The notes under the pieces: generated by a model
What the model was told of the DNA's origin: nothing
Seen by the model: the letters and a program-made list of their open reading frames with translations, nothing else
Database searches by the model: none
Assembly: GCA_028717465.1 (NCBI GenBank)
Contig: JAQUNS010000011.1
Coordinates: 1-10,463 of the forward strand
Origin: Candidatus Omnitrophota bacterium
Lineage (GTDB): Bacteria > Omnitrophota > Gorgyraeia > Kaelpiales > Kaelpiaceae
Direction of reading: 5' to 3'
Length of the DNA: 10,463 bases
Position numbers and translations under genes: made by a program
Shown: positions 1 through 9,514 of the stretch, one piece after another
Layout of the letters: every line of letters begins with the position of its first letter
Position numbering within the stretch: the first letter of the stretch is position 1

Positions 1-157
1 AATCGTTGCCAGAATGGGAGTGCCGTACAAAGAAAGGGGCTGTTCGGTCATTACTATTATTATTGACGCTGACACTGATCAGCTTGGCGCTTTAACCGGA
101 AAGCTTGGCAGGATAAGCGGCCTTTCGGTGAAATCCGCTTTAAGTAAAGGTAAATAA
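1..157 (+). CDS. TM1266-type iron-only hydrogenase system regulator, C-terminal part
   Basis: Reading from base 2, the window opens inside a gene and gives about 51 residues before TAA at 155-157. The peptide contains ARMGVPYKERGCSVITIII, then DADTDQLGALTGKLGRISG, then LSVKSALSKGK. This matches the C-terminal half of the small (about 80-90 residue) ACT-like proteins known as TM1266 or 'putative iron-only hydrogenase system regulator', which typically contain GRMG(I/V)PY and LTGKLGRI..VSVK. These proteins are found next to hydE/hydF/hydG and are presumed regulatory; the mechanism and ligand are not established to my knowledge. The stop codon is only 3 bases before hydF, so the genes are probably co-transcribed. 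The start lies outside the window. Identification rests on motif recall plus the neighbouring hyd genes. Confidence 0.85.
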   Translation, partial: IVARMGVPYKERGCSVITIIIDADTDQLGALTGKLGRISGLSVKSALSKGK

Positions 158-160
158 TCC

Positions 161-1429
161 ATGAAGACAACGCCTAAATCTTTAAGGTTGCAGATAGGAA
201 TTTTCGGACGTACCAATGTGGGTAAGTCCAGCTTTTTAAATTTAGTTACCGGCCAAGATGTCTCAATTACTTCAGACCAGCCCGGCACGACTACCGATGT
301 TGTCGAAAAAGTCATGGAACTTCTTCCGGTAGGGCCTGTTGTCTTTTTAGATACAGCCGGATTAGACGACAGATCTTTTTTAGGAGAGAAGAGGCTGAAA
401 AAAACAGAAAAAATATTTAATCGCTCTGAAATAATAGTTCTAATTGTAGAACCGGATATCTGGACAAATTACGAACAGAGAGTTTTTCAGGAATCATGCC
501 TCAGAGAAAGGCCGCTCATAATAGTCGTCAATAAAGTAGATATCAATTCTGTTTCGGATAAGTTTATTGGTTTTATTGAATCCAAAACAAAAAATTTTAT
601 TTTAGTTTCCAGCACCGATTCTAAAAACAGAGACAGATACCTAGCTCCGTTTAAAGAACTTCTGTTAAAATTATGCCCGGATAATTTTCTAAAAACCCCG
701 CCCATACTCAACGATCTTATCCCCAAAGGTGGTGTTGCAGTTTTAATTGTTCCGATAGACTTAGAAGCGCCCAAGGGCAGGATTATCCTTCCTCAGGTCC
801 AGGCTATCAGGGATGCTTTAGACGGAAATCAGGCTGCTCTGGTGGTTAAAGAGAGCGAGTATCTTGAGGTTTTAAACAAGTTTTCCGTCAGGCCTGACAT
901 TGTTGTCTGTGATTCCCAGGTAGTTGATTTTATGATTAAAAATACTCCGGCTGATATCCCGGCTACGACTTTCTCGATATTGTTTTCACGTTACAGAGGA
1001 GATATAGCTCAGGAGATAAAAGGTGTTTTAACAATAGATAATTTAAACCCAGAAGACAGGATTTTAATAGCAGAAGCATGTTCTCACCATCCCATAGAAG
1101 ATGATATCGGCAGAGTCAAGCTGCCTAAATGGTTGAGCGAATATCTTGGTTTTAATGTGCGATGGGACAGCTGCGCAGGCAGGGATTACCCTGAAAACTT
1201 TCAGAGTTATAAACTGATAATTCACTGCGGTGCCTGTATGATTACCAGATATGAGATGTTAAACCGCATAGAACAGGCCATTAAAGCAGGTGTTGCCATT
1301 ACGAATTACGGTATCTGCATATCTTATCTTAAAGGCGTCTTAGAGCGCGTTATTGCACCGATACCCGGGGCAGTCGATCTGTTTAATAATTATAAAAAGG
1401 AGTTTAAATATGGGGTTAAACGCAACTAA
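161..1429 (+). CDS. hydF: HydF, [FeFe]-hydrogenase H-cluster maturation GTPase
   Basis: HydF is the cytoplasmic GTPase and scaffold on which the 2Fe subcluster is assembled before transfer to apo-hydrogenase. The 422-residue product has the usual length and order. The N-terminal GTPase domain has a P-loop at residues 16-24 (GRTNVGKSS), the G3 motif DTAG at 64-67 and the G4 motif NKVD at 124-127. A middle dimerisation segment includes FSRYRGDI. The C-terminal iron-sulfur domain has C307-S-H309 and H355-C356-G-A-C359. The three cysteines match the cluster ligands known in the family (CxH...HCxxC). The start ATG follows the preceding stop by 3 bases, with AAAGG at 146-150 as a possible ribosome site. 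The 3' end overlaps hydG by 20 bases, which suggests translational coupling. All key residues are present, so it should be functional. Confidence 0.97.
   Translation: MKTTPKSLRLQIGIFGRTNVGKSSFLNLVTGQDVSITSDQPGTTTDVVEKVMELLPVGPVVFLDTAGLDDRSFLGEKRLKKTEKIFNRSEIIVLIVEPDIWTNYEQRVFQESCLRERPLIIVVNKVDINSVSDKFIGFIESKTKNFILVSSTDSKNRDRYLAPFKELLLKLCPDNFLKTPPILNDLIPKGGVAVLIVPIDLEAPKGRIILPQVQAIRDALDGNQAALVVKESEYLEVLNKFSVRPDIVVCDSQVVDFMIKNTPADIPATTFSILFSRYRGDIAQEIKGVLTIDNLNPEDRILIAEACSHHPIEDDIGRVKLPKWLSEYLGFNVRWDSCAGRDYPENFQSYKLIIHCGACMITRYEMLNRIEQAIKAGVAITNYGICISYLKGVLERVIAPIPGAVDLFNNYKKEFKYGVKRN
1396..1402 (+). promoter_or_regulatory. Ribosome binding site that sets the hydG start
   Basis: AAAGGAG lies 7 bases before ATG at 1410, inside the end of hydF. 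It decides between this ATG and an in-frame start at 1353 that would add 19 residues lying deeper inside hydF and without such a site. The resulting hydF-hydG overlap is 20 bases. Confidence 0.8.
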
Positions 1430-2906
1430 AACACTTAAGTGGGAGCAGTCCAGGATTAAAGAGCAGGAGATAAGCAAGTACCTTAAGGCCGGCCGCGATT
1501 TCATAGACGATTCTAAAATAGAGAGCATTTTAAAAAGAAATAAAACTCAAGATAAAAAAATCATATCGGATATAATTTCAAAATCACTCACCATCCAAAC
1601 TCTAACTATGGATGAGTCAGCTTACCTTCTTAACATAGAAGATAAAGATTTACTTGTGATGATGGAAGATGCTGCGCTCAAAGTGAAGAAAAAGGTTTAT
1701 GACAATAGGATTGTTACGTTCGCTCCTCTATATATGTCTAATATGTGCGTTAACGATTGTTTATATTGCGGATTTCGCAAATCCAATCTTTCAGCCCAGA
1801 GGCGATTACTCGGTAGAGAAGAGGTGGTAAAAGAGACAGAGGTTTTAGCCGGCTCTATCGGACATAAGAGGTTAATAGCAGTTTATGGCGAACATTATTT
1901 AACCGATACAGACTATATTGAAGAAACGCTGCGTGCTATTTACAGCGTGAAAGTGAAAACCAAAAATGGTTTTGGAGCTATCCGGCGGGTGAATATCAAT
2001 GCCGCCCCTCTTGCGATAGCTGATTTAAAGAGACTCCATAATGCCGGTATCGGGACCTATCAGGTTTTTCAGGAGACCTACCACCATGCAACTTATGCTT
2101 CGGTTCATCCTCAGGATACTATCAAAGGGGATTATAGGTGGCGTCTTTACTCTATGCACAGGGCTATGGAGGCAGGCGTAGATGATGTTGGCCTGGGAGT
2201 CTTGTTTGGGTTATACGACTGGAAATTTGATGTTATGGGCCTGGTTGCCCATACCAGGGATTTAGAAGAGAAATTTAAAATAGGAGCCCATACTATATCT
2301 TTTCCCCGTTTGGAGCCGGCCGAGAATACGCCTTTTACCGAAAATCCCATGTATAAAGTATCAGACGATGATTTCAAAAAGCTGATAACAGTTATACGTC
2401 TTGCGGTACCTCATACAGGCATGATTATAACTGCCCGGGAAAATTCCAAAATCAGAACAGAGGCCATTAGGCTGGGTATTACCCAGACCGATGCTTCAAC
2501 ACGCATAGGCGTAGGCTCCTATAGCGATAATTACTCAGATCAGGATGGTTCCAGGCAGCAGTTTTATCTTGGAGATACCAGGTCTTTGGACGAAGTCATA
2601 AGAGAGCTGGCCGGAATGGGCTATATTACGTCTTTCTGTACAGCCGGATACAGGTGCGGCCGTACCGGAGAGAATATCATGCGTCTTTTAAGGACCGGAG
2701 AGGAAGGAAAGTTTTGTAAGCTTAATGCTGTTTTAACTTTTCGTGAATGGCTGGACGATTTTGCAACCGAAGAGACCAGGAAGGTATCCGAGCCTTTACT
2801 GAGCAGAGAGATAAACGATATTAAACATCAAATGCCCGGCATCTATGAAGAGTTTGAAAGATATTACCACAGGATAAAAAATGGAGAGAGAGATCTTTAC
2901 TTCTGA
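1410..2906 (+). CDS. hydG: HydG, radical SAM tyrosine lyase of H-cluster maturation
   Basis: HydG cleaves tyrosine with SAM chemistry and makes the Fe(CO)2(CN)-cysteine synthon for the 2Fe subcluster. From ATG 1410 the product has 498 residues, normal for the family. The SAM-cluster motif is C113-VND-C117-LY-C120, followed by GFRKSN. A GE motif (VYGEHY) and the conserved stretch FQETYHHATYASVHP follow, the latter from the region that holds the dangler-iron histidine. PRLEPAENTP is also typical. The C-terminal auxiliary cluster normally uses CX2CX22C. Here the aligned positions are C410, G413 and C436, so the second cysteine is glycine, while an extra cysteine sits at 416 (CTAGYRC). Spacing of the outer two cysteines is exact, so this is a substitution rather than a frame error. 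The hydE start overlaps the hydG end by 26 bases. The family call is firm; full activity is less certain because of the changed motif. Confidence 0.95.
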   Translation: MGLNATKTLKWEQSRIKEQEISKYLKAGRDFIDDSKIESILKRNKTQDKKIISDIISKSLTIQTLTMDESAYLLNIEDKDLLVMMEDAALKVKKKVYDNRIVTFAPLYMSNMCVNDCLYCGFRKSNLSAQRRLLGREEVVKETEVLAGSIGHKRLIAVYGEHYLTDTDYIEETLRAIYSVKVKTKNGFGAIRRVNINAAPLAIADLKRLHNAGIGTYQVFQETYHHATYASVHPQDTIKGDYRWRLYSMHRAMEAGVDDVGLGVLFGLYDWKFDVMGLVAHTRDLEEKFKIGAHTISFPRLEPAENTPFTENPMYKVSDDDFKKLITVIRLAVPHTGMIITARENSKIRTEAIRLGITQTDASTRIGVGSYSDNYSDQDGSRQQFYLGDTRSLDEVIRELAGMGYITSFCTAGYRCGRTGENIMRLLRTGEEGKFCKLNAVLTFREWLDDFATEETRKVSEPLLSREINDIKHQMPGIYEEFERYYHRIKNGERDLYF

Positions 2907-3915
2907 CAATATCGATTTTGAGTTTACCGAGCAAGGCATAGAGTCTCTACTGGCCTGCAAAGAGAGTGAAAAAATTATTTCTTATGCCAATAACCTATGC
3001 CGGAAGAATTTTAGGGGCAGCGTTTGGATAAGAGGGTTAATTGAGTTCTCCAACTATTGCTGCCGCAACTGTTTATATTGCGGGCTCCGCCGTGACAATA
3101 AAAACATAAAACGCTACCGAATGAGCAGCGACGATATTTTAAAAACTGCAGAGACGATTATAAAAGAAGGCATCGAAACAGTAGTTCTACAGTCCGGAGA
3201 CGATCTTTATTACTCTAGATACGAAATATCCGATATAATTAAAAAAATAAAAAAAATTAACCCGAAGCAAGCCCTAACGCTCTCTGTAGGAGAAAGAGAT
3301 CTTGACGATTATAAGTATTTTTTTGATGCCGGAGCAGATAGGTTTCTTATGAAGCACGAAACTTTCAGCGAGAATCTATATAATAAAATTCATCCGGGCC
3401 AGAGTTTCAAAGCAAGGATCAAGACTATAGAGTTATTGAAAAAGATAGGTTTTCAAACAGGTATAGGCAATATAATCGGACTTCCTTACCAGACCTTGAA
3501 AGACTTGGCAAAAGATATAATGTTTTACTATGATTTTCAACCCGACATGATAGGCTCAGGGCCATTTATACCCCAGGGCGATACTATTTTTAAAGATTTC
3601 AAATCTCCAAGCTGCGAGCTGGTGCTAAAGTGTTATGCCTTGGCCAGGATTGCGGTTAAAAGTGCCCAGATACCGGTCTCAACTGCTTCCTTAACTCTAG
3701 GCCAGGAGAAGTTTCAAATCTCTGCGCTAAAGTCAGGGTGTAACGTTGTAATGGCTGGCTTTACTCCTGAACATATCAGATTAAATTATAAAATATATGA
3801 TAACAGATTTAAACAGAGCCTATCTGGTATTAGAGATACTATAGAGAAAGCCGGATTTACCCCTGACTGCACTAGAGGGGATTCTTTAAATCTATTTAGT
3901 TCTGCCAGATTTTAA
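2881..3915 (+). CDS. hydE: HydE, radical SAM maturase of [FeFe]-hydrogenase
   Basis: HydE is a cytoplasmic radical SAM enzyme that works after HydG and processes its iron synthon during 2Fe-subcluster assembly. The 344-residue product has the usual length. The cluster motif is C60-CRN-C64-LY-C67, followed by [14 protein letters not shown], a hallmark of HydE (biotin-synthase-like fold). Later features are [22 protein letters not shown] and the glycine-rich [12 protein letters not shown]. The C-terminal second cluster seen in some homologues needs three cysteines, and only a single cysteine occurs in the last 35 residues, so that non-essential cluster is absent. ATG 2881 has AGGA at 2872-2875 just upstream and lies inside hydG, so coupled translation is likely. 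The 3' end overlaps the oppositely oriented pgk gene by 24 bases. Confidence 0.96.
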
Positions 3916-3948
3916 GGCTGCAACTCCCGGCAGAACTTTGCCCTCTAG
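3872..3948. repeat. Nested inverted repeats at the hydE/pgk convergence
   Basis: Two perfect inverted repeats are nested here. The inner arms are AGTTCTGCC (3898-3906) and GGCAGAACT (3929-3937), 9 base pairs around a 22-base loop. The outer arms are CTAGAGGG (3872-3879) and CCCTCTAG (3941-3948), 8 base pairs. The inner stem spans the hydE stop and the last pgk codons. The plus-strand inner stem is followed only by TTT and the minus-strand one by AAATAG, so neither direction has a proper U-tract. It may act as a shared mRNA 3' end structure for the convergent genes, but this is inference. Confidence 0.45.
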
Positions 3949-5169
3949 ATATTCCAAAGATGCTCCTCCTCCCGTTGATACATGGCTAAAATGATCCGCA
4001 AGCCCGAGCTGATTTATAGCTGCAGCGGTATCTCCTCCGCCAACTACCGTTGTTGCGCTTAATCCGGCTATGAAACGGGCTATCTCTTCTGTGCCTCTGG
4101 CAAAGGCTGCTATTTCGAACATACCTAGAGGCCCGTTCCAGACTACTGTTTCAGTCTCTAGGAGAGCTTCTTTTATAATTGCTATTGTTTTTGGCCCTAT
4201 ATCTATTGCCATCGTTCCTTCCGGAATGCTCTCTACTATTTGGGTGGCGGCATCAGCGGTTATCTCGTTTACAACAACATGGTCTATTGGCAGTATGATG
4301 TTTACACCTTTTTCTTGAGCAGCATTTAGTATCTCTCTTGCCAGCCCTATTTTATCATTTTCGACTTTGGAATTTCCTATCTCTTTACCCATCGCTGCCA
4401 GAAAAGTATATGCCATACCTCCGCCTATTATTATAGTATCTGCTAAATCCAGCAGATTGGTCAGGACCTCTATTTTGTCTGAAACCTTGGCGCCCCCTAA
4501 AATTGCACACAGAGGGCGTGACGGATTTTGCAAAATTCTGTCAAAATATTCTACTTCTTTGCCCATAAGGAATCCTGCGGCCGAAGGAAGGTGTTCTGCT
4601 ATTCCGGCTGTGGATGCATGCGCTCTATGTGCTGTGCCGAAGGCATCGTTAATATATACATCTGCCAGAGAAGCCAGAGCCCGGGCGAATCCGGGGTCAT
4701 TTGCCTCTTCTTCGTTATGGTACCTAAGGTTTTCCAGCATCATAATGCTTCCAGGTTTAAGCTGTTGTGCCATGCTGCGCACTTCTTCTCCTACGCAGTC
4801 CGGAGCCATTATTACCTCTTGGCCAAGAAGCCTGGATAAGTATTCGGCAACCGGTTTTAAGCTGTATTCTGGATTAGCTTGGCCCTTAGGGCGCCCTAGA
4901 TGGCTCATCAGTATTACGCTGGCACCTTGACTTAAGGCATATCTTATTGTTGGCAATGCAGCGGTTATTCTTGTATCATCAGCCACTTCACCGTTCTCCA
5001 GCGGTACGTTGAAATCAACCCTGACAATAACTCTCTTGCCTTGCAAGTTAATGCCCTCAATAGAAGGCATAGAATCAGCAAGCTTGCTTCTACGGGCAAA
5101 AGAACTCTTGTAGGTTGTTAACAGCAGGCAGAAAGACACCAAAACGGCAAAGACTTTTATTTTGAGCAT
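3892..5169 (-). CDS. pgk: Phosphoglycerate kinase with signal-like N-terminal extension
   Basis: This enzyme interconverts 1,3-bisphosphoglycerate plus ADP and 3-phosphoglycerate plus ATP in glycolysis and gluconeogenesis. The catalytic body is complete: RVDFNVPL at 50-57, SHLGRPKG at 89-96, then [26 protein letters not shown] at 377-384 and [14 protein letters not shown] near the end. The ATG at 5167-5169 is preceded by a strong AAGGAGG, giving 425 residues. Typical bacterial enzymes are about 390-400 residues and would start near M34 (codon 5068-5070), which has no evident ribosome site. Residues 1-33 have lysines at 3 and 5, a hydrophobic run from V6 to L17 and a polar end with S23-F-A25, which looks like a signal peptidase I site. 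The protein could therefore be exported, membrane-anchored or cleaved, or a second start could supply the cytosolic form. The enzyme identity is certain; the location is not. Confidence 0.96.
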
Positions 5170-5177
5170 AATATTTG

Positions 5178-5184
5178 CCTCCTT
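5178..5184 (-). promoter_or_regulatory. Strong ribosome binding site for extended pgk start
   Basis: On the minus strand this reads AAGGAGG, 8 bases before the ATG at 5167-5169. It is among the clearest Shine-Dalgarno sites in the window and supports translation of the long form of pgk. A TTG further upstream at 5191-5193 lies before this site and is not a credible start. Confidence 0.85.
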
Positions 5185-5195
5185 CCCTTGCAAAT

Positions 5196-5224
5196 AATTT
5201 ATTATACTTGTTGTTTTCTGTCAA
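5196..5224 (-). promoter_or_regulatory. Putative pgk promoter
   Basis: On the minus strand a perfect -35 TTGACA (5219-5224) is followed after 17 bases by TAAATT (5196-5201), a 4 of 6 match to the -10 box. A perfect TATAAT (5201-5206) also occurs, but at a 12-base spacing that does not suit a sigma-70 promoter. The position just ahead of the pgk ribosome site makes a promoter here likely, though which -10 box is used is unclear. Confidence 0.5.
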
Positions 5225-5253
5225 TTTTAATATTTATAAAGCAATAGGTTGCG

Positions 5254-5282
5254 TTGACCTGGCTTATAAATTCTGTTACAAT
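5254..5282 (+). promoter_or_regulatory. Sigma-70-type promoter for tRNA-Lys
   Basis: TTGACC at 5254-5259 and TACAAT at 5277-5282 are separated by exactly 17 bases, 5 of 6 matches at each box. Transcription would start near 5289, about 15 bases before the mature tRNA-Lys. It diverges from the pgk promoter 30 bases away. Confidence 0.75.
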
Positions 5283-5303
5283 TTTTAATCATTTTGTTTT
5301 TAT

Positions 5304-5376
5304 GGGCCGTTGGCTCAACCGGCAGAGCAGGGGCCTCTTAAGCCCAAGGTTGCAGGTTCAAGTCCTGCACGGCCCA
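5304..5376 (+). tRNA. tRNA-Lys(CTT)
   Basis: A complete cloverleaf of 73 bases. The acceptor arms are GGGCCGT and ACGGCCC with discriminator A at 5376. The D stem is GCTC/GAGC, the anticodon loop CTCTTAA has anticodon CTT at 5337-5339, and the T arm is GCAGG-TTCAAGT-CCTGC. The outermost anticodon-stem pair is G5330 against A5346, a mismatch. The CCA tail is not encoded, since TTTT follows, so a CCA-adding enzyme is needed. The next tRNA starts 63 bases downstream and could be on the same transcript. Confidence 0.95.
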
Positions 5377-5439
5377 TTTTATTGATCGGATTTGCTTTTG
5401 CGGTTAAGCGACGCAGGCTATAAAGCTATCAGCTAAGAT

Positions 5440-5521
5440 GCCGAGGTGGCGGAATGGCAGACGCGCATGGCTTAGGACCATGTGGGTAACCCCCGTGCGG
5501 GTTCAAGTCCCGCCTTCGGCA
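5440..5521 (+). tRNA. tRNA-Leu(TAG)
   Basis: A class II tRNA of 82 bases. The acceptor arms GCCGAGG and CTTCGGC pair with one G-T wobble, and the discriminator is A at 5521. The anticodon arm is CATGG-CTTAGGA-CCATG with anticodon TAG at 5473-5475. A long variable arm (TGGGTAACCCCCGT) is typical for leucine tRNAs, and the T arm is GCGGG-TTCAAGT-CCCGC. CCA is not encoded. A TATAAA at 5419-5424 sits where a -10 box could be, but I see no good -35 box with it, so read-through from tRNA-Lys is an equal possibility. Confidence 0.96.
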
Positions 5522-5608
5522 TTTAATTATACCTAAAACAGGCTGGAAAAAATTTTAACAGGGTAATTTTATTAGGCTGCTGGCTTTAGAAAGTTTAATG
5601 AAGTTGTC

Positions 5609-5637
5609 TTGCTCATAAATAGCAATTTTGGTATAAT
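5609..5637 (+). promoter_or_regulatory. Sigma-70-type promoter before tRNA-Gly
   Basis: TTGCTC at 5609-5614 and a perfect TATAAT at 5632-5637 are separated by 17 bases. The start would be near 5644, leaving a leader of about 54 bases before tRNA-Gly. No clear promoter lies between tRNA-Gly and the following EIIA gene, so this one may also drive the PTS/yvcK operon. Confidence 0.7.
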
Positions 5638-5641
5638 AAAC

Positions 5642-5682
5642 ACCGCTTTTGTTAATTAAAGTCTGTCTAAATTGCGGTTTTT
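5642..5682 (+). terminator. Weak stem-loop with U-tract in the tRNA-Gly leader
   Basis: ACCGC at 5642-5646 can pair with GCGGT at 5674-5678, and the T run 5678-5682 follows or overlaps the stem. The stem is only 5 pairs with a 27-base loop, partly helped by TTT/AAA pairing. It resembles a weak intrinsic terminator or attenuator placed between promoter and tRNA. It could equally be chance in AT-rich sequence. Confidence 0.2.
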
Positions 5683-5697
5683 ATGTGTTTTGTTTAT

Positions 5698-5772
5698 GCG
5701 GGAGTAGCTCAGCGGTAGAGCATAACCTTGCCAAGGTTGGGGTCGCGGGTTCGAATCCCGTCTCCCGCTCCA
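5698..5772 (+). tRNA. tRNA-Gly(GCC) with encoded CCA
   Basis: A full cloverleaf. The acceptor arms are GCGGGAG and CTCCCGC, the D stem is GCTC/GAGC, the anticodon arm is TAACC-TTGCCAA-GGTTG with GCC at 5730-5732, and the T arm is GCGGG-TTCGAAT-CCCGT. The last T-stem pair is G-T. The discriminator is T5769, and CCA follows at 5770-5772, unlike the other two tRNAs here. The EIIA gene begins 61 bases further on. Confidence 0.97.
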
Positions 5773-5833
5773 TAGTGTTTTTGGAAAGAACATAATGGGT
5801 CGTGCGTTAACCTGAAAATGGCGGGCAATAAAA

Positions 5834-6304
5834 ATGAATATATCCGAACTGCTTACCGTCGATACGATAAAATTAAATTTTAGCGCTAAAGATAAAGAAG
5901 AGGTTATAGAACAGATGCTGGATATTTTAGTCAAAGCTAAAAAAATTTCAAAAACACATAAACCTAAAATACAGAAAGCCCTCATTGCCAGAGAGAACCT
6001 GGGCTCTACGGGTATAGGGCAGGGAGTCGGAATTCCTCATGCCAAAGACGATTGCATCAAGAAAATAACTGCTTGTTGCGCCATTGCCAAAAAAGGCATC
6101 GATTTCGATGCTTTAGACGGAGAGCCTGCCCAGATATTTTTTATGCTGCTGGCTCCCAAAGAAGCCACAGGAGAACACCTGAAAACTCTGGCCAAAATTT
6201 CAAGGTTGGTCAGGGCTAGATTTTTCCGTTCCTCACTCATTCAGTGCAAGACCCCAGATAACCTGCTCTCTATTTTGAAAAGAGAAGAAGGAGAGCTAGG
6301 ATAA
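5834..6304 (+). CDS. PTS EIIA domain protein, fructose/nitrogen (PtsN) type
   Basis: The 156-residue protein is a single PTS EIIA type-2 domain, the size of PtsN (EIIA-Ntr). The phosphorylated histidine is H69 in GVGIPHAK, preceded by the typical ALIARENLGSTGIGQG. The C-terminal part (FMLLAPKEATGEHLKTLAKISRL) is also characteristic. It accepts phosphate from HPr and either passes it to a sugar permease or, in PtsN-like proteins, regulates partners directly. No EIIB or EIIC gene is seen here, and HPr and Enzyme I genes lie downstream, so a regulatory role is more likely. It is cytoplasmic, with no membrane segment. The ribosome site is weak (GGCGGG at 5820-5825). It is 61 bases from tRNA-Gly without an evident promoter and 19 bases before yvcK. 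I leave the symbol blank because ptsN and other EIIA names cannot be separated from sequence alone. Confidence 0.9.
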   Translation: MNISELLTVDTIKLNFSAKDKEEVIEQMLDILVKAKKISKTHKPKIQKALIARENLGSTGIGQGVGIPHAKDDCIKKITACCAIAKKGIDFDALDGEPAQIFFMLLAPKEATGEHLKTLAKISRLVRARFFRSSLIQCKTPDNLLSILKREEGELG

Positions 6305-6323
6305 ATTTGCAGAGTCAATAGCG

Positions 6324-7568
6324 ATGAAGAGCAAATTGCGCTGGCTATACCCTGGCATAGGAGTTAAAAGATGGATATTCCTTTCTGCGGTGGGAATAAT
6401 ACTGGTATCTTTAAGCTCAGCCAGTTTAGTGAAATCTAAAAGCTATGCCTCAAATATCTTCTCCGGCCTGGGCCTTGTTTTCGGAGCTCTTACAATAATA
6501 ATTGGCATAAGAGAACTAGTGACTTCTGTAGTAAATGTCATATATCCGGAACGGTCTAAGGAACTCTTGGAAGTTTTTTTAGAAAAGAAAAGATTAGGCA
6601 AAGGCCCCAATATCGTTGCTATTGGCGGCGGCACCGGATTGTCTACTCTGCTGCAGGGGCTAAAAAATATAACTGCCAATACCACTGCTATTGTTACCGT
6701 TGCTGATGACGGTGGTTCATCAGGCAGGCTGCGCAGGGATTTTAACACTCTTCCTCCGGGCGATATCAGAAACTGTCTTGTTGCTTTAGCCGATGCCCAG
6801 CCTCTTATGAGAGAACTGTTCCAATACCGGTTTGAAGCAGAAGGAGATTTAAAAGGCCATAGTTTCGGAAATCTTTTTATTACCGCTCTCTCTCAAATAA
6901 CCGGAGATTTTGAAAAAGCCATAAAAGAGTCATCTAAGGTTCTGGCTATAAAAGGCAGGGTGATACCAGCTACGACGGCTAAAGTTCAGCTTATCGCAGA
7001 ACATATCAATGGCAAAGAGACAGTTGGTGAGTCCAAGATACCCCAAGCCAAGCTAAAGATCAAAAATGTTCGCTTGGAGCCTTCCAATTGCGAACCCGCT
7101 TATGAAGCTATAGAGGCTATAAACAGTGCCGAAGTCATAGTTTTCGGGCCCGGGAGCCTATACACCAGCATAATTCCGAATCTTCTTGTTCCGGGCATGT
7201 CAGAGGCAATAAATAGGTCTAATGCAACTAAAATCTATGTTTGCAATATAATGACTCAGAATGGAGAGACCGATGGTTACAGCGTCTTTGATCACATCAA
7301 AGCTCTTTTAGATCATTCTTCGCCTGGCCTGTTCCAGTACTGCATTGTTAATCTATCTTTTATTTCGGAAGCCCTTTTGAGCAGATATAAACAAGAGCAG
7401 TCCTCTGTAGTCGAGCCGGATATTATTAAAGTTGAAAAGCTTGGCATCAGAGCCATTGTGCGCGATTTAGCCGATCTAGGGGATGTGGTCAGGCACAATC
7501 CCTTTAAGCTTGCAGAGCTGATTTTAGAAGTCATGGGACTGGATAAAGGCAAAGGGAAATGGTTTTAG
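6324..7568 (+). CDS. yvcK: YvcK/CofD-like protein with N-terminal membrane anchor
   Basis: The 414-residue protein has two parts. Residues about 16-36 and 45-67 are hydrophobic and look like two membrane helices. The rest is a YvcK domain of the CofD-like superfamily. It has the nucleotide-binding loop AIGGGTGLSTLL (G101-G103), VADDGGSSGRLR (A127 to R137), the LPPGDIRNCLVAL motif, the GHSFGNLFITAL motif and GPGSLYTSIIPNLL (G275 onward). In Bacillus, YvcK is needed for growth on gluconeogenic carbon and for cell-wall homeostasis, and it binds UDP-sugars; that is family knowledge. The classical Bacillus form lacks the membrane segments, which occur in some other phyla. The gene overlaps the next one by 10 bases. 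The Bacillus yvcK cluster also contains an HPr-like gene (crh), and an HPr gene lies two genes downstream here. No strong ribosome site precedes ATG 6324. Confidence 0.92.
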   Translation: MKSKLRWLYPGIGVKRWIFLSAVGIILVSLSSASLVKSKSYASNIFSGLGLVFGALTIIIGIRELVTSVVNVIYPERSKELLEVFLEKKRLGKGPNIVAIGGGTGLSTLLQGLKNITANTTAIVTVADDGGSSGRLRRDFNTLPPGDIRNCLVALADAQPLMRELFQYRFEAEGDLKGHSFGNLFITALSQITGDFEKAIKESSKVLAIKGRVIPATTAKVQLIAEHINGKETVGESKIPQAKLKIKNVRLEPSNCEPAYEAIEAINSAEVIVFGPGSLYTSIIPNLLVPGMSEAINRSNATKIYVCNIMTQNGETDGYSVFDHIKALLDHSSPGLFQYCIVNLSFISEALLSRYKQEQSSVVEPDIIKVEKLGIRAIVRDLADLGDVVRHNPFKLAELILEVMGLDKGKGKWF

Positions 7569-9514
7569 ACAAAAACAATATCTATTTAAGCATGGCTGTG
7601 CATGCCCACCAGCCGGTCGATAATTTTGATGATGTTTTTTCTCAATCCTTTAAGAAGTCTTACTGGCCGTTTTTCCGCACCCTGCATGAATTTCCTGAAA
7701 TCAAGATTTCTTTCCATATTAGCGGGAGTCTTTTAGACTGGGCCGTTAAAAATCAGGCCGATTTTATAGAATTTATAAGTAATCTTGTCAGAAAAGGGCA
7801 GCTTGAAATTTTGACCGCGGGATATTATGAGCCTATTCTGGCTTTGATTTCCGACCGTGATAAAAAAGGCCAGATTCTTATGCACATCGATAAAATGAAA
7901 AAGTTTTTTGGATTTAAACCCCAGGGTCTCTGGCTTACCGAACGAGTTTGGGAACCGGAATTAATCAAAGCGGTTCAAGAGACCGGACTTAAATTTATAT
8001 TAGTAGACGATGAACATTTTAAAAGAGCAGGCATGGATCCAGAAAAATTAGACGGCTATTATATGGCCCAGCATAATTCAAGTGAAATAGCGGTATTTGG
8101 CGGGTCTAAATTCTTGAGGTACTCTATGCCGTTTAAATTGCCCAACGAAACAGTAGGCTATCTTTTATCCCAAAAGCATCAGTCCATAGGAGCAATTTCT
8201 TTTGCCGATGATTTGGAAAAGTTCGGTTTTTGGCCACATACCTATGAGTGGGTATATGAGAAAAAATGGTTTTTTAATTTTTTTCAAGTTCTTTCTGAAA
8301 ACAAAAACTGGCTTAAAACAGTCCATTTTCAAGATATAGTACAGCACCGTTCTCCTACTGCCCGCGTTGATCTGCCCTGCGGTAGTTATCCGGAGATGAT
8401 GGAATGGTCTGATAATATGTTTAAAAGTTTCTTAGTTAAGTATCCTGAGAGCAACCATCTTCAAAAGAGAATGCTTGTAGTTAGCGCCGGCATTTCAGAG
8501 CATAAAGACGCAGCAAAAAAGCAATTGGAGGCAGCTCAAATAGCTATATATAAATCTCAGAGTAATGACGTATACTGGCATGGAGTTTACGGCGGGTTGT
8601 ACCTAACTCACTTAAGATATGTCGCTTACAAGTATTTGATTGAATCCGAAAACCAGTTCGATAGCTATGCAAAAACCATTCTCCCTCACTATGAACTGAA
8701 AGATTTTGATTTAGATGGAAATAAAGAGTTAATTTTTAAAGATGAGATCTATAACATTTATATTGCTCCTCACTCAGGAGGAATGATTACAGAAATAGAT
8801 TATAAGCCAAGCTGTATGAATATATTAAACACCTTGGCCAGGAGGCCGGAAAAGTACCATAAAAAGGTTCTGGACTCATTAGCCGTTAATTGTTTGCCAT
8901 CCTGTAATTCTGGGCCAGTAAGCATACATGATATTCAAAGCCAGAATTTAGAAGATCTTAAAAGTGCCCTTGTCTACGATTATTATCGCAAGGCTGCCTG
9001 GATAGACCATATATATTTCCAGCGGGACTTGGACTCTCAGGCCATTATAAGAAACTCTATTAATGATATTTCCCAGCTCTGGGAGAAGCCCTACAAAGCC
9101 AGGGTGAGCAAAAATAAAATAACCCAGACCGTAAAAACTCCAGAGCTCTCTTTAACAAAAAGCCTGTTGGTGAAAGATAACATACTCGGTTTTCGCTATG
9201 AATTAAAGAGCAATTTCAAAGAGCATGTTGTATTTGATTCCGAGTTTAATCTGCTCTTGTATTCTTCCGCGGCTATGAAAGATAAAGATTTTAAATCCGT
9301 AACCGAGATTAATTTAGAGGATGAGTGGTTTAGATTAAAATACAAGTTCTCTTTTTCCAGAGAGATTCATTTTCTTGCCTATCCTATAGAGACAGTCTCA
9401 GATTCAGAGTCGGGCATACAGAGGACTTATCAGGGCCTGTCTTTACACTTTGTCTGGCCGGTAAATAACAGCTTTACGGATATCAGTTTTACAATAGATA
9501 TAGACAAAATATGA
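7559..9514 (+). CDS. GH57 4-alpha-glucanotransferase / alpha-amylase-like enzyme
   Basis: The 651-residue protein has the layout of the GH57 glucanotransferase/AmyA group. There is a catalytic barrel at about residues 8-290, a helical domain (DUF1925 type) to about 380, and a C-terminal beta-rich domain (DUF1926 type) from about 390. Conserved regions are HAHQPV (H17-Q18-P19), AGYYEPIL, WLTERVWEPEL with the presumed nucleophile E128, and FADDLEKFGFWP with the presumed acid/base D218. The family normally has DDGEKFG, so L219 replaces glycine. Members cleave or transfer alpha-1,4-glucan chains. No signal peptide is present, so the substrate is probably intracellular glycogen or maltodextrin. 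AAAGGCAAAGGG just before ATG 7559 can serve as ribosome site. It overlaps yvcK by 10 bases and HPr by 4 (ATGA), so it is coupled to the PTS genes. Amylase and transferase cannot be told apart here. Confidence 0.9.
   Translation: MVLDKNNIYLSMAVHAHQPVDNFDDVFSQSFKKSYWPFFRTLHEFPEIKISFHISGSLLDWAVKNQADFIEFISNLVRKGQLEILTAGYYEPILALISDRDKKGQILMHIDKMKKFFGFKPQGLWLTERVWEPELIKAVQETGLKFILVDDEHFKRAGMDPEKLDGYYMAQHNSSEIAVFGGSKFLRYSMPFKLPNETVGYLLSQKHQSIGAISFADDLEKFGFWPHTYEWVYEKKWFFNFFQVLSENKNWLKTVHFQDIVQHRSPTARVDLPCGSYPEMMEWSDNMFKSFLVKYPESNHLQKRMLVVSAGISEHKDAAKKQLEAAQIAIYKSQSNDVYWHGVYGGLYLTHLRYVAYKYLIESENQFDSYAKTILPHYELKDFDLDGNKELIFKDEIYNIYIAPHSGGMITEIDYKPSCMNILNTLARRPEKYHKKVLDSLAVNCLPSCNSGPVSIHDIQSQNLEDLKSALVYDYYRKAAWIDHIYFQRDLDSQAIIRNSINDISQLWEKPYKARVSKNKITQTVKTPELSLTKSLLVKDNILGFRYELKSNFKEHVVFDSEFNLLLYSSAAMKDKDFKSVTEINLEDEWFRLKYKFSFSREIHFLAYPIETVSDSESGIQRTYQGLSLHFVWPVNNSFTDISFTIDIDKI

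What the first reader, a model, noticed from the sequence alone, without database searches (positions are those of the whole stretch)
5068..5169. Phosphoglycerate kinase starting with a signal-peptide-like segment
The only start with a strong Shine-Dalgarno site (AAGGAGG, 8 bases upstream) gives pgk 33 extra residues: two lysines, a hydrophobic run V6-L17 and S-F-A as a possible cleavage site. The rest is a complete glycolytic kinase. Export or membrane anchoring of this enzyme would be unusual and could imply a surface (moonlighting) role or a membrane-bound glycolytic assembly. Alternatively two starts could give two forms.
Basis: partly seen in the sequence, partly recalled or inferred. Interest (0 to 1): 0.7.

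Follow-up and report, generated by a model that had tools for sequence, protein, structure and literature searches.

The report
Glycolysis enzyme with a sorting leader
This bacterium carries an extra copy of an ordinary sugar-burning enzyme with an export-like front tag that ends in two arginines, and relatives carry the same kind of tag on several other enzymes of the same pathway, which points to an undescribed way of sending metabolic enzymes out of the normal cell interior.

Summary
The pgk at 5169-3892 (-) is 425 aa: a 33-residue leader (ATG with AAGGAGG 8 nt upstream; lysines, hydrophobic core, S-F-A site) plus an intact PGK core. It is not a conserved pgk extension: the single pgk found in each of three relatives lacks it, and the window pgk is an extra or foreign copy inserted between a hydE-like gene and tRNA-Lys, a site empty in sister genome G002. 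The leader ends SSFA|RRSK. Following that, I found what looks like a lineage-specific tag: a signal-like segment followed by RR-[VIL]-[KR]. In sister genome G001, 34 of 126 signal-like proteins carry RR just after the hydrophobic core, against 20 of 423 control windows. Tagged PGK, GAPDH, PFK, enolase, phosphoglycerate mutase and FBPase copies occur in two Omnitrophota families, with plain PGK, GAPDH or PFK copies in the same genomes. The window pgk is best read as the tagged PGK of such a set. Export is inferred; a cytoplasm-facing anchor remains possible. Blind samples of the window's own genome (3 of 58) and of four other genomes show no excess of the tag.

The parts
3892..5169 (-). pgk, 425 aa form: leader plus complete phosphoglycerate kinase
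   Evidence: AlphaFold2 model mean pLDDT 90.2 matches 1php at TM 0.90
5071..5169 (-). leader, residues 1-33 (n-region MLKIK, uncharged V6-Y20, c-region KSSFA, then RRSKLADS)
   Evidence: helix 4-22 in the model, pLDDT under 50 for residues 12-32
5089..5094 (-). codons of R26-R27 directly after the S-F-A site (A25): the RR motif
   Evidence: sequence; motif statistics
5178..5184 (-). Shine-Dalgarno AAGGAGG, 8 nt before ATG 5169
   Evidence: sequence
5201..5230 (-). promoter-like TTAAAA-18-TATAAT upstream of the long start
   Evidence: weak: 6 sites found, 3.0 +/- 1.6 in shuffles
3892..5070 (-). PGK core from M34; 13 of 13 catalytic or substrate residues checked are present
   Evidence: which residues matter is recalled
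2881..3915 (+). hydE-like gene (named by eye), convergent neighbour; left side of the insertion site
5303..5377 (+). tRNA-Lys(CTT), first of three tRNA genes; right side of the insertion site, next to hydE in sister genome G002

Best explanation
The gene is an additional, catalytically intact phosphoglycerate kinase of an Omnitrophota bacterium (family of Ca. Saelkia), inserted between a hydE-like gene and a tRNA cluster, translated from the SD-equipped ATG at 5169 with a Sec-type signal peptide whose predicted cleavage leaves RR at the mature N-terminus. That leader is one example of a lineage-specific sorting tag (signal-peptide-like segment + RR-[VIL]-[KR]) which marks a set of proteins, among them second copies of several glycolytic enzymes, for a place other than the free cytoplasm. 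Shown: the leader, its SD, the insertion and its non-orthologous origin, the motif's enrichment in G001 and the tagged glycolytic paralogues. Inferred: that the species also has a plain pgk, that the leader is translated and cleaved, that the tag directs export (periplasm, surface, a partner cell or an internal compartment), and that the PGK works there.
For: SD and open leader. Not the orthologue: YvcK of the same contig is 73-75% identical to G001/G002 while this pgk is only 57-58%; G002 has hydE next to tRNA-Lys; grouping this pgk with the genus pgk is rejected (AU p 7.6e-5). Leader PGKs elsewhere: P0003/P0121/P0122 (SAQA|RRGK), G061 461 aa (YALRRSK) and G035 1059 aa (VFRRIKS), with plain pgk copies in the same two genomes. 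Tagged GAPDH in G001, G003, G061; PFK in G003, G001; enolase in G035, G083; iPGM-like and FBPase in G035. Motif in the G001 sample 34/126 vs 20/423, polytopic 0/60, 18 with small-x-[AGSC]|RR; +4 K/R 20/34, background 0.11; +3 VILMT 26/34, background 0.30; -1 A 16/34. Similar leaders recur on unlike mature proteins (leader score 111, mature 35); enolase pair: leader 9/28 identical, 323/385 from RR on, RR[VI]KE kept. Active site 13/13.
Against: The blind samples of the window's own genome (3/58 vs 8/192), of G003 (0/22 vs 1/74), G035 (0/5), G002 (0/2) and G027 (2/22 vs 4/74) show no excess; tagged genes seem to sit in islands. The window leader has S at +3, not V/I/L. Window and P0003 leaders are no more alike than region-wise shuffles (1332 of 5000 reach the score), and a clade of the two is rejected (p 0.002), so they may be independent fusions. 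Positive charge right after a Sec cleavage site is unusual: 0 of 13 signal-like family proteins exceeded +1, the window has +2. Tagged GGDEF and HATPase proteins would normally need cytoplasmic nucleotides. The tagged G035 enolase has too weak a hydrophobic core to be called signal-like by my rule (it is missing from the list). No dedicated signal-peptide program was available; no expression data.
Confidence: 0.58

Rival explanations
1. Uncleaved membrane anchor facing the cytoplasm: the hydrophobic segment inserts with the short N-tail out, the RR-K cluster stays inside (positive-inside rule, recalled), and the kinase is tethered to the inner face of the membrane as part of a membrane-bound metabolic assembly.
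For: More positive charge after than before the hydrophobic stretch in window and P0003 leaders (sequences); tagged GGDEF and HATPase domains normally act in the cytoplasm; nucleotide substrates are available there.
Against: The uncharged stretch is only 15 residues; 18 of 34 G001 RR leaders have a small-x-[AGSC] site exactly before RR, which an anchor would not need; polytopic proteins rarely show RR after the first helix (G001 0 of 60, G000 2 of 35).
Confidence: 0.22
2. Exported single moonlighting PGK: ordinary export of one glycolytic enzyme for surface binding, unrelated to a wider system.
For: Surface PGK is described for streptococci and other bacteria (PMC7729029, passages); no other tagged gene was noticed in this window (one search lists only pgk).
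Against: The same leader type recurs on other glycolytic enzymes and on unrelated proteins in relatives; known surface PGKs lack signal peptides (recalled).
Confidence: 0.1
3. Ordinary cytoplasmic PGK translated from M34; the leader frame is an untranslated accident.
For: One gene set uses M34 (P0002); 76 of 166 start sites chosen have no SD of 4 or more bases either; plain relatives start near this place.
Against: Strong SD only at ATG 5169; a signal-like open frame was seen in no other plain pgk examined; the same architecture in P0003/P0121/P0122.
Confidence: 0.08
4. Relic: an extra pgk whose leader is real but which is decaying and does little.
For: P0121 and P0122 are 28 and 179 residues shorter than P0003 through internal gaps; the f32 tagged PGKs have lost the GGGD aspartate and the HRAHAS arginine; long branch of the window pgk (0.53).
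Against: The window copy keeps 13 of 13 checked residues and folds with high confidence.
Confidence: 0.1

Closest known systems
Phosphoglycerate kinase family (PF00162), bacterial
   Same: full-length fold, 58% identity to Thermotoga 1vpe in the structural alignment, all 13 checked residues
   Different: 33-residue signal-like leader; gene outside the usual pgk-tpiA surroundings
Moonlighting surface glycolytic enzymes (PGK, GAPDH, enolase of streptococci, Candida and others)
   Same: glycolytic enzymes outside the cytosol
   Different: those are the housekeeping copy without a signal peptide (recalled; said of GAPDH in an abstract listed); here separate tagged copies
Kinetoplastid glycosomes and targeted PGK isoenzymes (PMC7729029, passages)
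   Same: paralogous PGKs carrying targeting signals, compartmented glycolysis
   Different: peroxisomal signals in a eukaryote; no resemblance of the signal
PEXEL/TEXEL and RXLR motifs after a signal peptide (Plasmodium, Toxoplasma, oomycetes; recalled)
   Same: works-like resemblance only: secretory signal followed by a short arginine motif that decides a second destination
   Different: different motif (RR-hydrophobic-K/R), bacteria, no evidence of delivery into another cell
Tat twin-arginine signal
   Same: two arginines and a hydrophobic core
   Different: Tat RR precedes the hydrophobic core (recalled); here it follows it

Membership tests
Phosphoglycerate kinase (PF00162) | full-length family match and catalytic residues | tested here: met
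   PF00162 precomputed for P0001, PDB relatives, fold 1php TM 0.90, 13 of 13 residues
Sec/SPase I signal peptide | basic n-region, hydrophobic core, small residues at -3 and -1 | tested here: met
   K3, K5; core V6-Y20; S23-F24-A25; simple rules only, no SignalP
Sec/SPase I signal peptide | no strong positive charge just after the cleavage site (recalled rule, a tendency more than a definition) | tested here: not met
   RRSKLADS, net +2; 13 signal-like family proteins ranged -4 to +1
Sec/SPase I signal peptide | cleavage and export in the cell | not testable with these tools
   needs N-terminal proteomics or a reporter
Tat signal peptide | twin arginine before the hydrophobic core | tested here: not met
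   RR at 26-27, after the core (sequence)
Lipoprotein signal (SPase II) | lipobox with Cys at +1 | tested here: not met
   only C14, inside the core (sequence)
RR-leader set described here | signal-like core then RR at its end, A or L before it | tested here: met
   SSFA|RR; compare
RR-leader set described here | V/I/L/M/T at +3 and K/R at +4 | tested here: inconclusive
   +3 is S, +4 is K; the G061 tagged PGK has the same RRSK
RR-leader set described here | common dedicated transport machinery | not tested
   no candidate machinery looked for

The most novel reading that the evidence does not exclude
Saelkia-type and related Omnitrophota use a two-part N-terminal tag (signal peptide followed by RR-[VIL]-[KR]) to send a second, paralogous glycolysis (PFK, FBPase, GAPDH, PGK, phosphoglycerate mutase, enolase) together with signalling and repeat proteins across the cytoplasmic membrane, into an internal or periplasmic compartment or into a partner or prey cell; the window pgk is the catalytically intact PGK of that pathway.
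Probability: 0.3. Interest if true: 0.95.

Novelty: categorically new. Interest (0 to 1): 0.78.

Why it matters
A glycolysis outside the bacterial cytoplasm is, to my knowledge, not a known arrangement, and Omnitrophota are poorly known, not isolated, mostly ultra-small and suspected to depend on other cells (PMC10066038, start of abstract and passages). A short tag that marks metabolic enzymes would give a direct handle on how they interact with partners or are built inside, would let the sorted set of any genome be listed, and would be a new kind of sorting signal. If it proves to be a cytoplasm-facing anchor instead, it would still be a genome-encoded membrane-bound glycolytic assembly. The set can be tested with a reporter fusion in E. 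coli and with existing environmental proteomes.

Tried and rejected
Leader as a conserved pgk extension: rejected, plain relatives lack it. One clade of window + P0003 + P0121: rejected, AU p 0.002. Homology of the window and P0003 leaders: not supported. Mosaic or converted core: sliding identity showed no clear break. Second pgk of the MAG on C167 as the native copy: it groups with G041 (family f3), and its tpiA is 54% to f1 against 67-89% within f1, so probably a contaminant. Native pgk lost from the genome: cannot be told, because native rpoD and binding-protein genes of the canonical locus were not found either in the 76% complete MAG. Search of 5.8 billion proteins with residues 1-46 found only the query. 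Genome-contig scan with P0003: 12 loci, none matching from the start of the leader (matches begin at residues 18-39); their N-termini were not read. NCBIfam showed no sorting-signal model among the families listed for nine tagged proteins (one list was cut at 25 of 69). E. coli 50 kb as a control held only 4 signal-like calls, 0 with RR: too few. Supplements, proteomes and the phylum outside this class were not searched.

Full report
1. The observation. On the minus strand an ATG at 5169 is preceded by AAGGAGG with an 8-nt spacer and opens a 425-codon pgk ending at 3892. The first 33 residues are [33 protein letters not shown]: two lysines, 15 uncharged residues, K, S-S-F-A, then RRSK. M34 has no SD-like match. 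Two promoter-like sites lie 27-61 nt upstream of the long start, but the number in the region is only weakly above shuffles. The kinase core is complete: PF00162, 47 distinct PDB sequences matched with Thermotoga 1vpe best, AlphaFold2 mean pLDDT 90.2 with a helix at 4-22 and low confidence at 12-32, best fold match 1php, TM 0.90, and 13 of 13 catalytic or substrate residues present (which residues matter is recalled).

2. Where it sits. The window is contig C11 of a MAG (G000, 1.04 Mb, 76% complete). Family f1 holds five genomes; G003 is in all likelihood Ca. Saelkia tenebricola (identical pgk and equal contig length to JAVCDA010000016.1), an Omnitrophota bacterium. The contig belongs to the genus: YvcK is 73-75% identical to G001/G002 and 65-67% to G003/G004, and the gene order hydF-hydG-hydE / tRNA-Lys-Leu-Gly / PTS-IIA / yvcK / GH57 / HPr / PtsI (names by eye) is that of G002. 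In G002 hydE and tRNA-Lys are about 370 bp apart with no pgk between; in G001 about 7 kb of other genes lie between hydG and the tRNAs. So the pgk is an insertion beside the tRNA cluster.

3. Not the orthologue. In each of G001, G002 and G003 one pgk was found, without a leader, downstream of an rpoD-like gene and followed by tpiA (partial in G002, where the contig ends) and, in G001 and G003, a secG-like gene. The window pgk is only 57-61% identical to them, branches outside them, and grouping it with the genus pgk is rejected (AU p 7.6e-5). The MAG lacks the canonical locus: a search with rpoD gave only a 43% partial match, one with the binding protein gave only C167, and the only tpiA is on C167 with a second pgk that groups with G041 (family f3) and is probably a contaminant. 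Whether the species also has a plain pgk is therefore inferred, not seen.

4. The leader in other PGKs. Of 31 pgk loci read and 50 rows, only the window's has a signal-like extension behind a start codon (nearest: L065, mean hydrophobicity 1.84 behind a TTG). In 384 class genomes (353 with a match) only the G000 match, among those listed (the list was cut), starts at profile position 3 with no stop. In the protein collection three metagenomic proteins share the architecture, P0003 (426 aa), P0121 (398) and P0122 (247), with ...SAQA|RRGKTTF (the best 120 of 7794 hits were listed); P0121 and P0122 show internal gaps against P0003. A clade of window + P0003 + P0121 is rejected (p 0.002) and the two leaders are not more alike than shuffles, so the leader was probably gained more than once or lost in plain copies.

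5. What led further. A GAPDH search of family f1 and divergent pgk matches in large frames pointed to GAPDH and PGK domains inside larger proteins with signal-like N-termini. Reading them showed the same end of the leader: G001 GAPDH ...DVC RRVQT, G003 GAPDH ...LIC RRVQT, G003 PFK ...YTT RRVHT, G035 PGK+GAPDH ...FVF RRIKS, enolase ...WGL RRVKE, iPGM-like ...ETL RRIKD, FBPase ...AEA RRVKG. I wrote this down as a hypothesis before fetching further contigs.

6. Test on samples. Contigs were taken by number, without looking at content, plus stretches fetched earlier for synteny. Signal-like N-termini with at most one further membrane helix and RR in the 25 residues after the core: G001 34 of 126 against 20 of 423 control windows from the same proteins (Fisher p 2.6e-11), 0 of 60 polytopic proteins, 18 with small-x-[AGSC] exactly before RR. 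One of the 34 (L032) had been seen before the hypothesis; a few look like false calls. G000 3 of 58 (control 8 of 192; polytopic 2 of 35), G003 0 of 22 (1 of 74), G035 0 of 5 (1 of 20), G002 0 of 2 (1 of 5), G027 2 of 22 (4 of 74): no excess. Loci chosen because of PGK or GAPDH gave 9 of 14 (1 of 49), which is no test. So the tag is common in G001 and at most local elsewhere. Among the 34: A at -1 in 16, L in 10; V/I/L/M/T at +3 in 26 (background 0.30, p 3e-8); K/R at +4 in 20 (background 0.11, p 4e-11). Proteins were treated as independent although some leaders are related; near-identical leaders sit on unlike mature proteins (leader score 111, mature 35), as if leaders were exchangeable cassettes.

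7. What is tagged. Pfam on 40 proteins with RR after the hydrophobic stretch, at E up to 0.01: 22 match nothing; 18 match something: GAPDH (2), PFK, PGK, enolase, iPGM-like, FBPase, PRK/uridine-kinase-like, GNAT, HATPase, GGDEF+PAS, TPR, and, below the family cut-offs, a second TPR, LRR, methyltransferase-like (2) and an MCM winged helix; one CdaA-like protein is a false member. NCBIfam adds a type II GAPDH half to the G035 PGK protein, below its cut-off. Further tagged copies: G061 GAPDH 813 aa (LLRRLR) and, about 0.4 kb before it, G061 PGK 461 aa (YALRRSK, the same RRSK as the window), G001 PFK in a 1041-aa frame (VSRRTM), G083 enolase (SLRRIK). Plain, leaderless copies were read for pgk in G035, G061 and G083, GAPDH in G000, G001 and G003, PFK in G000-G003 and enolase in G000, G001 and G003. 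G000 itself holds a PFK fragment on C146 closest to the tagged PFK (41%), whose N-terminus is not on the contig, and two further leader-RR proteins (L175, L227). The tag is kept while the rest of the leader drifts: enolase of G035 and G083, leader 9 of 28 identical, from RR on 323 of 385, RR[VI]KE in both. Large PGK-containing proteins of G006 and G051 have signal-like starts without RR; that of G032 is cut at its start.

8. Reading. The most economical account is a lineage-specific sorting tag on a set of proteins that includes a second glycolysis, with the window pgk as its PGK. The exact small-x-A|RR arrangement speaks for cleavage and thus export; the arginines right after the site, unusual for Sec substrates (recalled; 0 of 13 family proteins above +1), would then be the recognisable part. 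The presence of GGDEF and HATPase domains and the need of PGK for ADP or ATP speak for a cytosol-like destination or for a cytoplasm-facing anchor. The tagged PGKs of G035 and G061 have lost the GGGD aspartate and the HRAHAS arginine, so not all tagged copies need be active; the window copy is intact.

9. Known or not. Moonlighting PGK on bacterial surfaces is well known (PMC7729029, passages; listing) and compartmented glycolysis with targeted PGK isoenzymes is known in kinetoplastids (same passages). In two Omnitrophota papers a term search of the main text found no phosphoglycerate kinase (PMC10066038; PMC8542988), and the passages shown mention no such tag. Paper searches showed no title or abstract start reporting an exported glycolysis or this tag in Omnitrophota; only open-licence PMC papers are held, and the listed papers other than those named here were not opened.

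10. Verdict. Observation confirmed; interpretation partly supported and widened. Interest is high because a simple reporter or proteomic test decides between export, anchor and accident.

Noticed in passing
L136 (G035:C33), 2-9333: Four consecutive leader-RR glycolytic or gluconeogenic genes: iPGM-like, PGK + type II GAPDH-like fusion, enolase, type V FBPase.
   Followed up: partly
L133 and L188 (G003:C30): Island with leader-RR PFK, GAPDH, methyltransferase-like and other proteins, not far from genes that look like hydrogenase/Mrp parts (by eye).
   Followed up: partly
L135 (G006:C53), 402-7916 and 8421-12608: 2505-aa protein with a signal-like start, PGK and PPDK domains, and a 1396-aa neighbour with a near-identical start; neither has RR after the signal-like segment.
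   Followed up: partly
L137 (G051:C54), 3870-10640: 2257-aa protein with a signal-like start and a divergent PGK domain; parts of the rest look like GAPDH and UDP-sugar pyrophosphorylase by eye.
   Followed up: no
L144 (G001:C7), 8521-14841: Five consecutive leader-RR genes (GNAT, TPR and unknown proteins).
   Followed up: partly
L032 (G001:C8), 10654-11376: Leader-RR PRK/uridine-kinase-like gene lying between the plain pgk and the rpoD-like gene of G001, on the opposite strand.
   Followed up: partly
L175 (G000:C19) 6907-7863 and L227 (G000:C31) 162-1025: Two further leader-RR proteins in the window's own genome (CCC RRVQ, no family; AAL RRSS, weak leucine-rich repeats).
   Followed up: partly
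G000:C167 (L002): pgk-tpiA-secG-like contig in the MAG that groups with another Omnitrophota family; probable contamination.
   Followed up: yes
window 3916-5302: The space between hydE and the tRNA-Lys-Leu-Gly cluster varies: empty in G002, pgk in G000, and in G001 about 7 kb of radical-SAM- and membrane-like genes (by eye) between hydG and the tRNAs.
   Followed up: yes
P0121, P0122: Metagenomic leader-PGKs with internal gaps against P0003 (assembly artefact or decaying copies).
   Followed up: no
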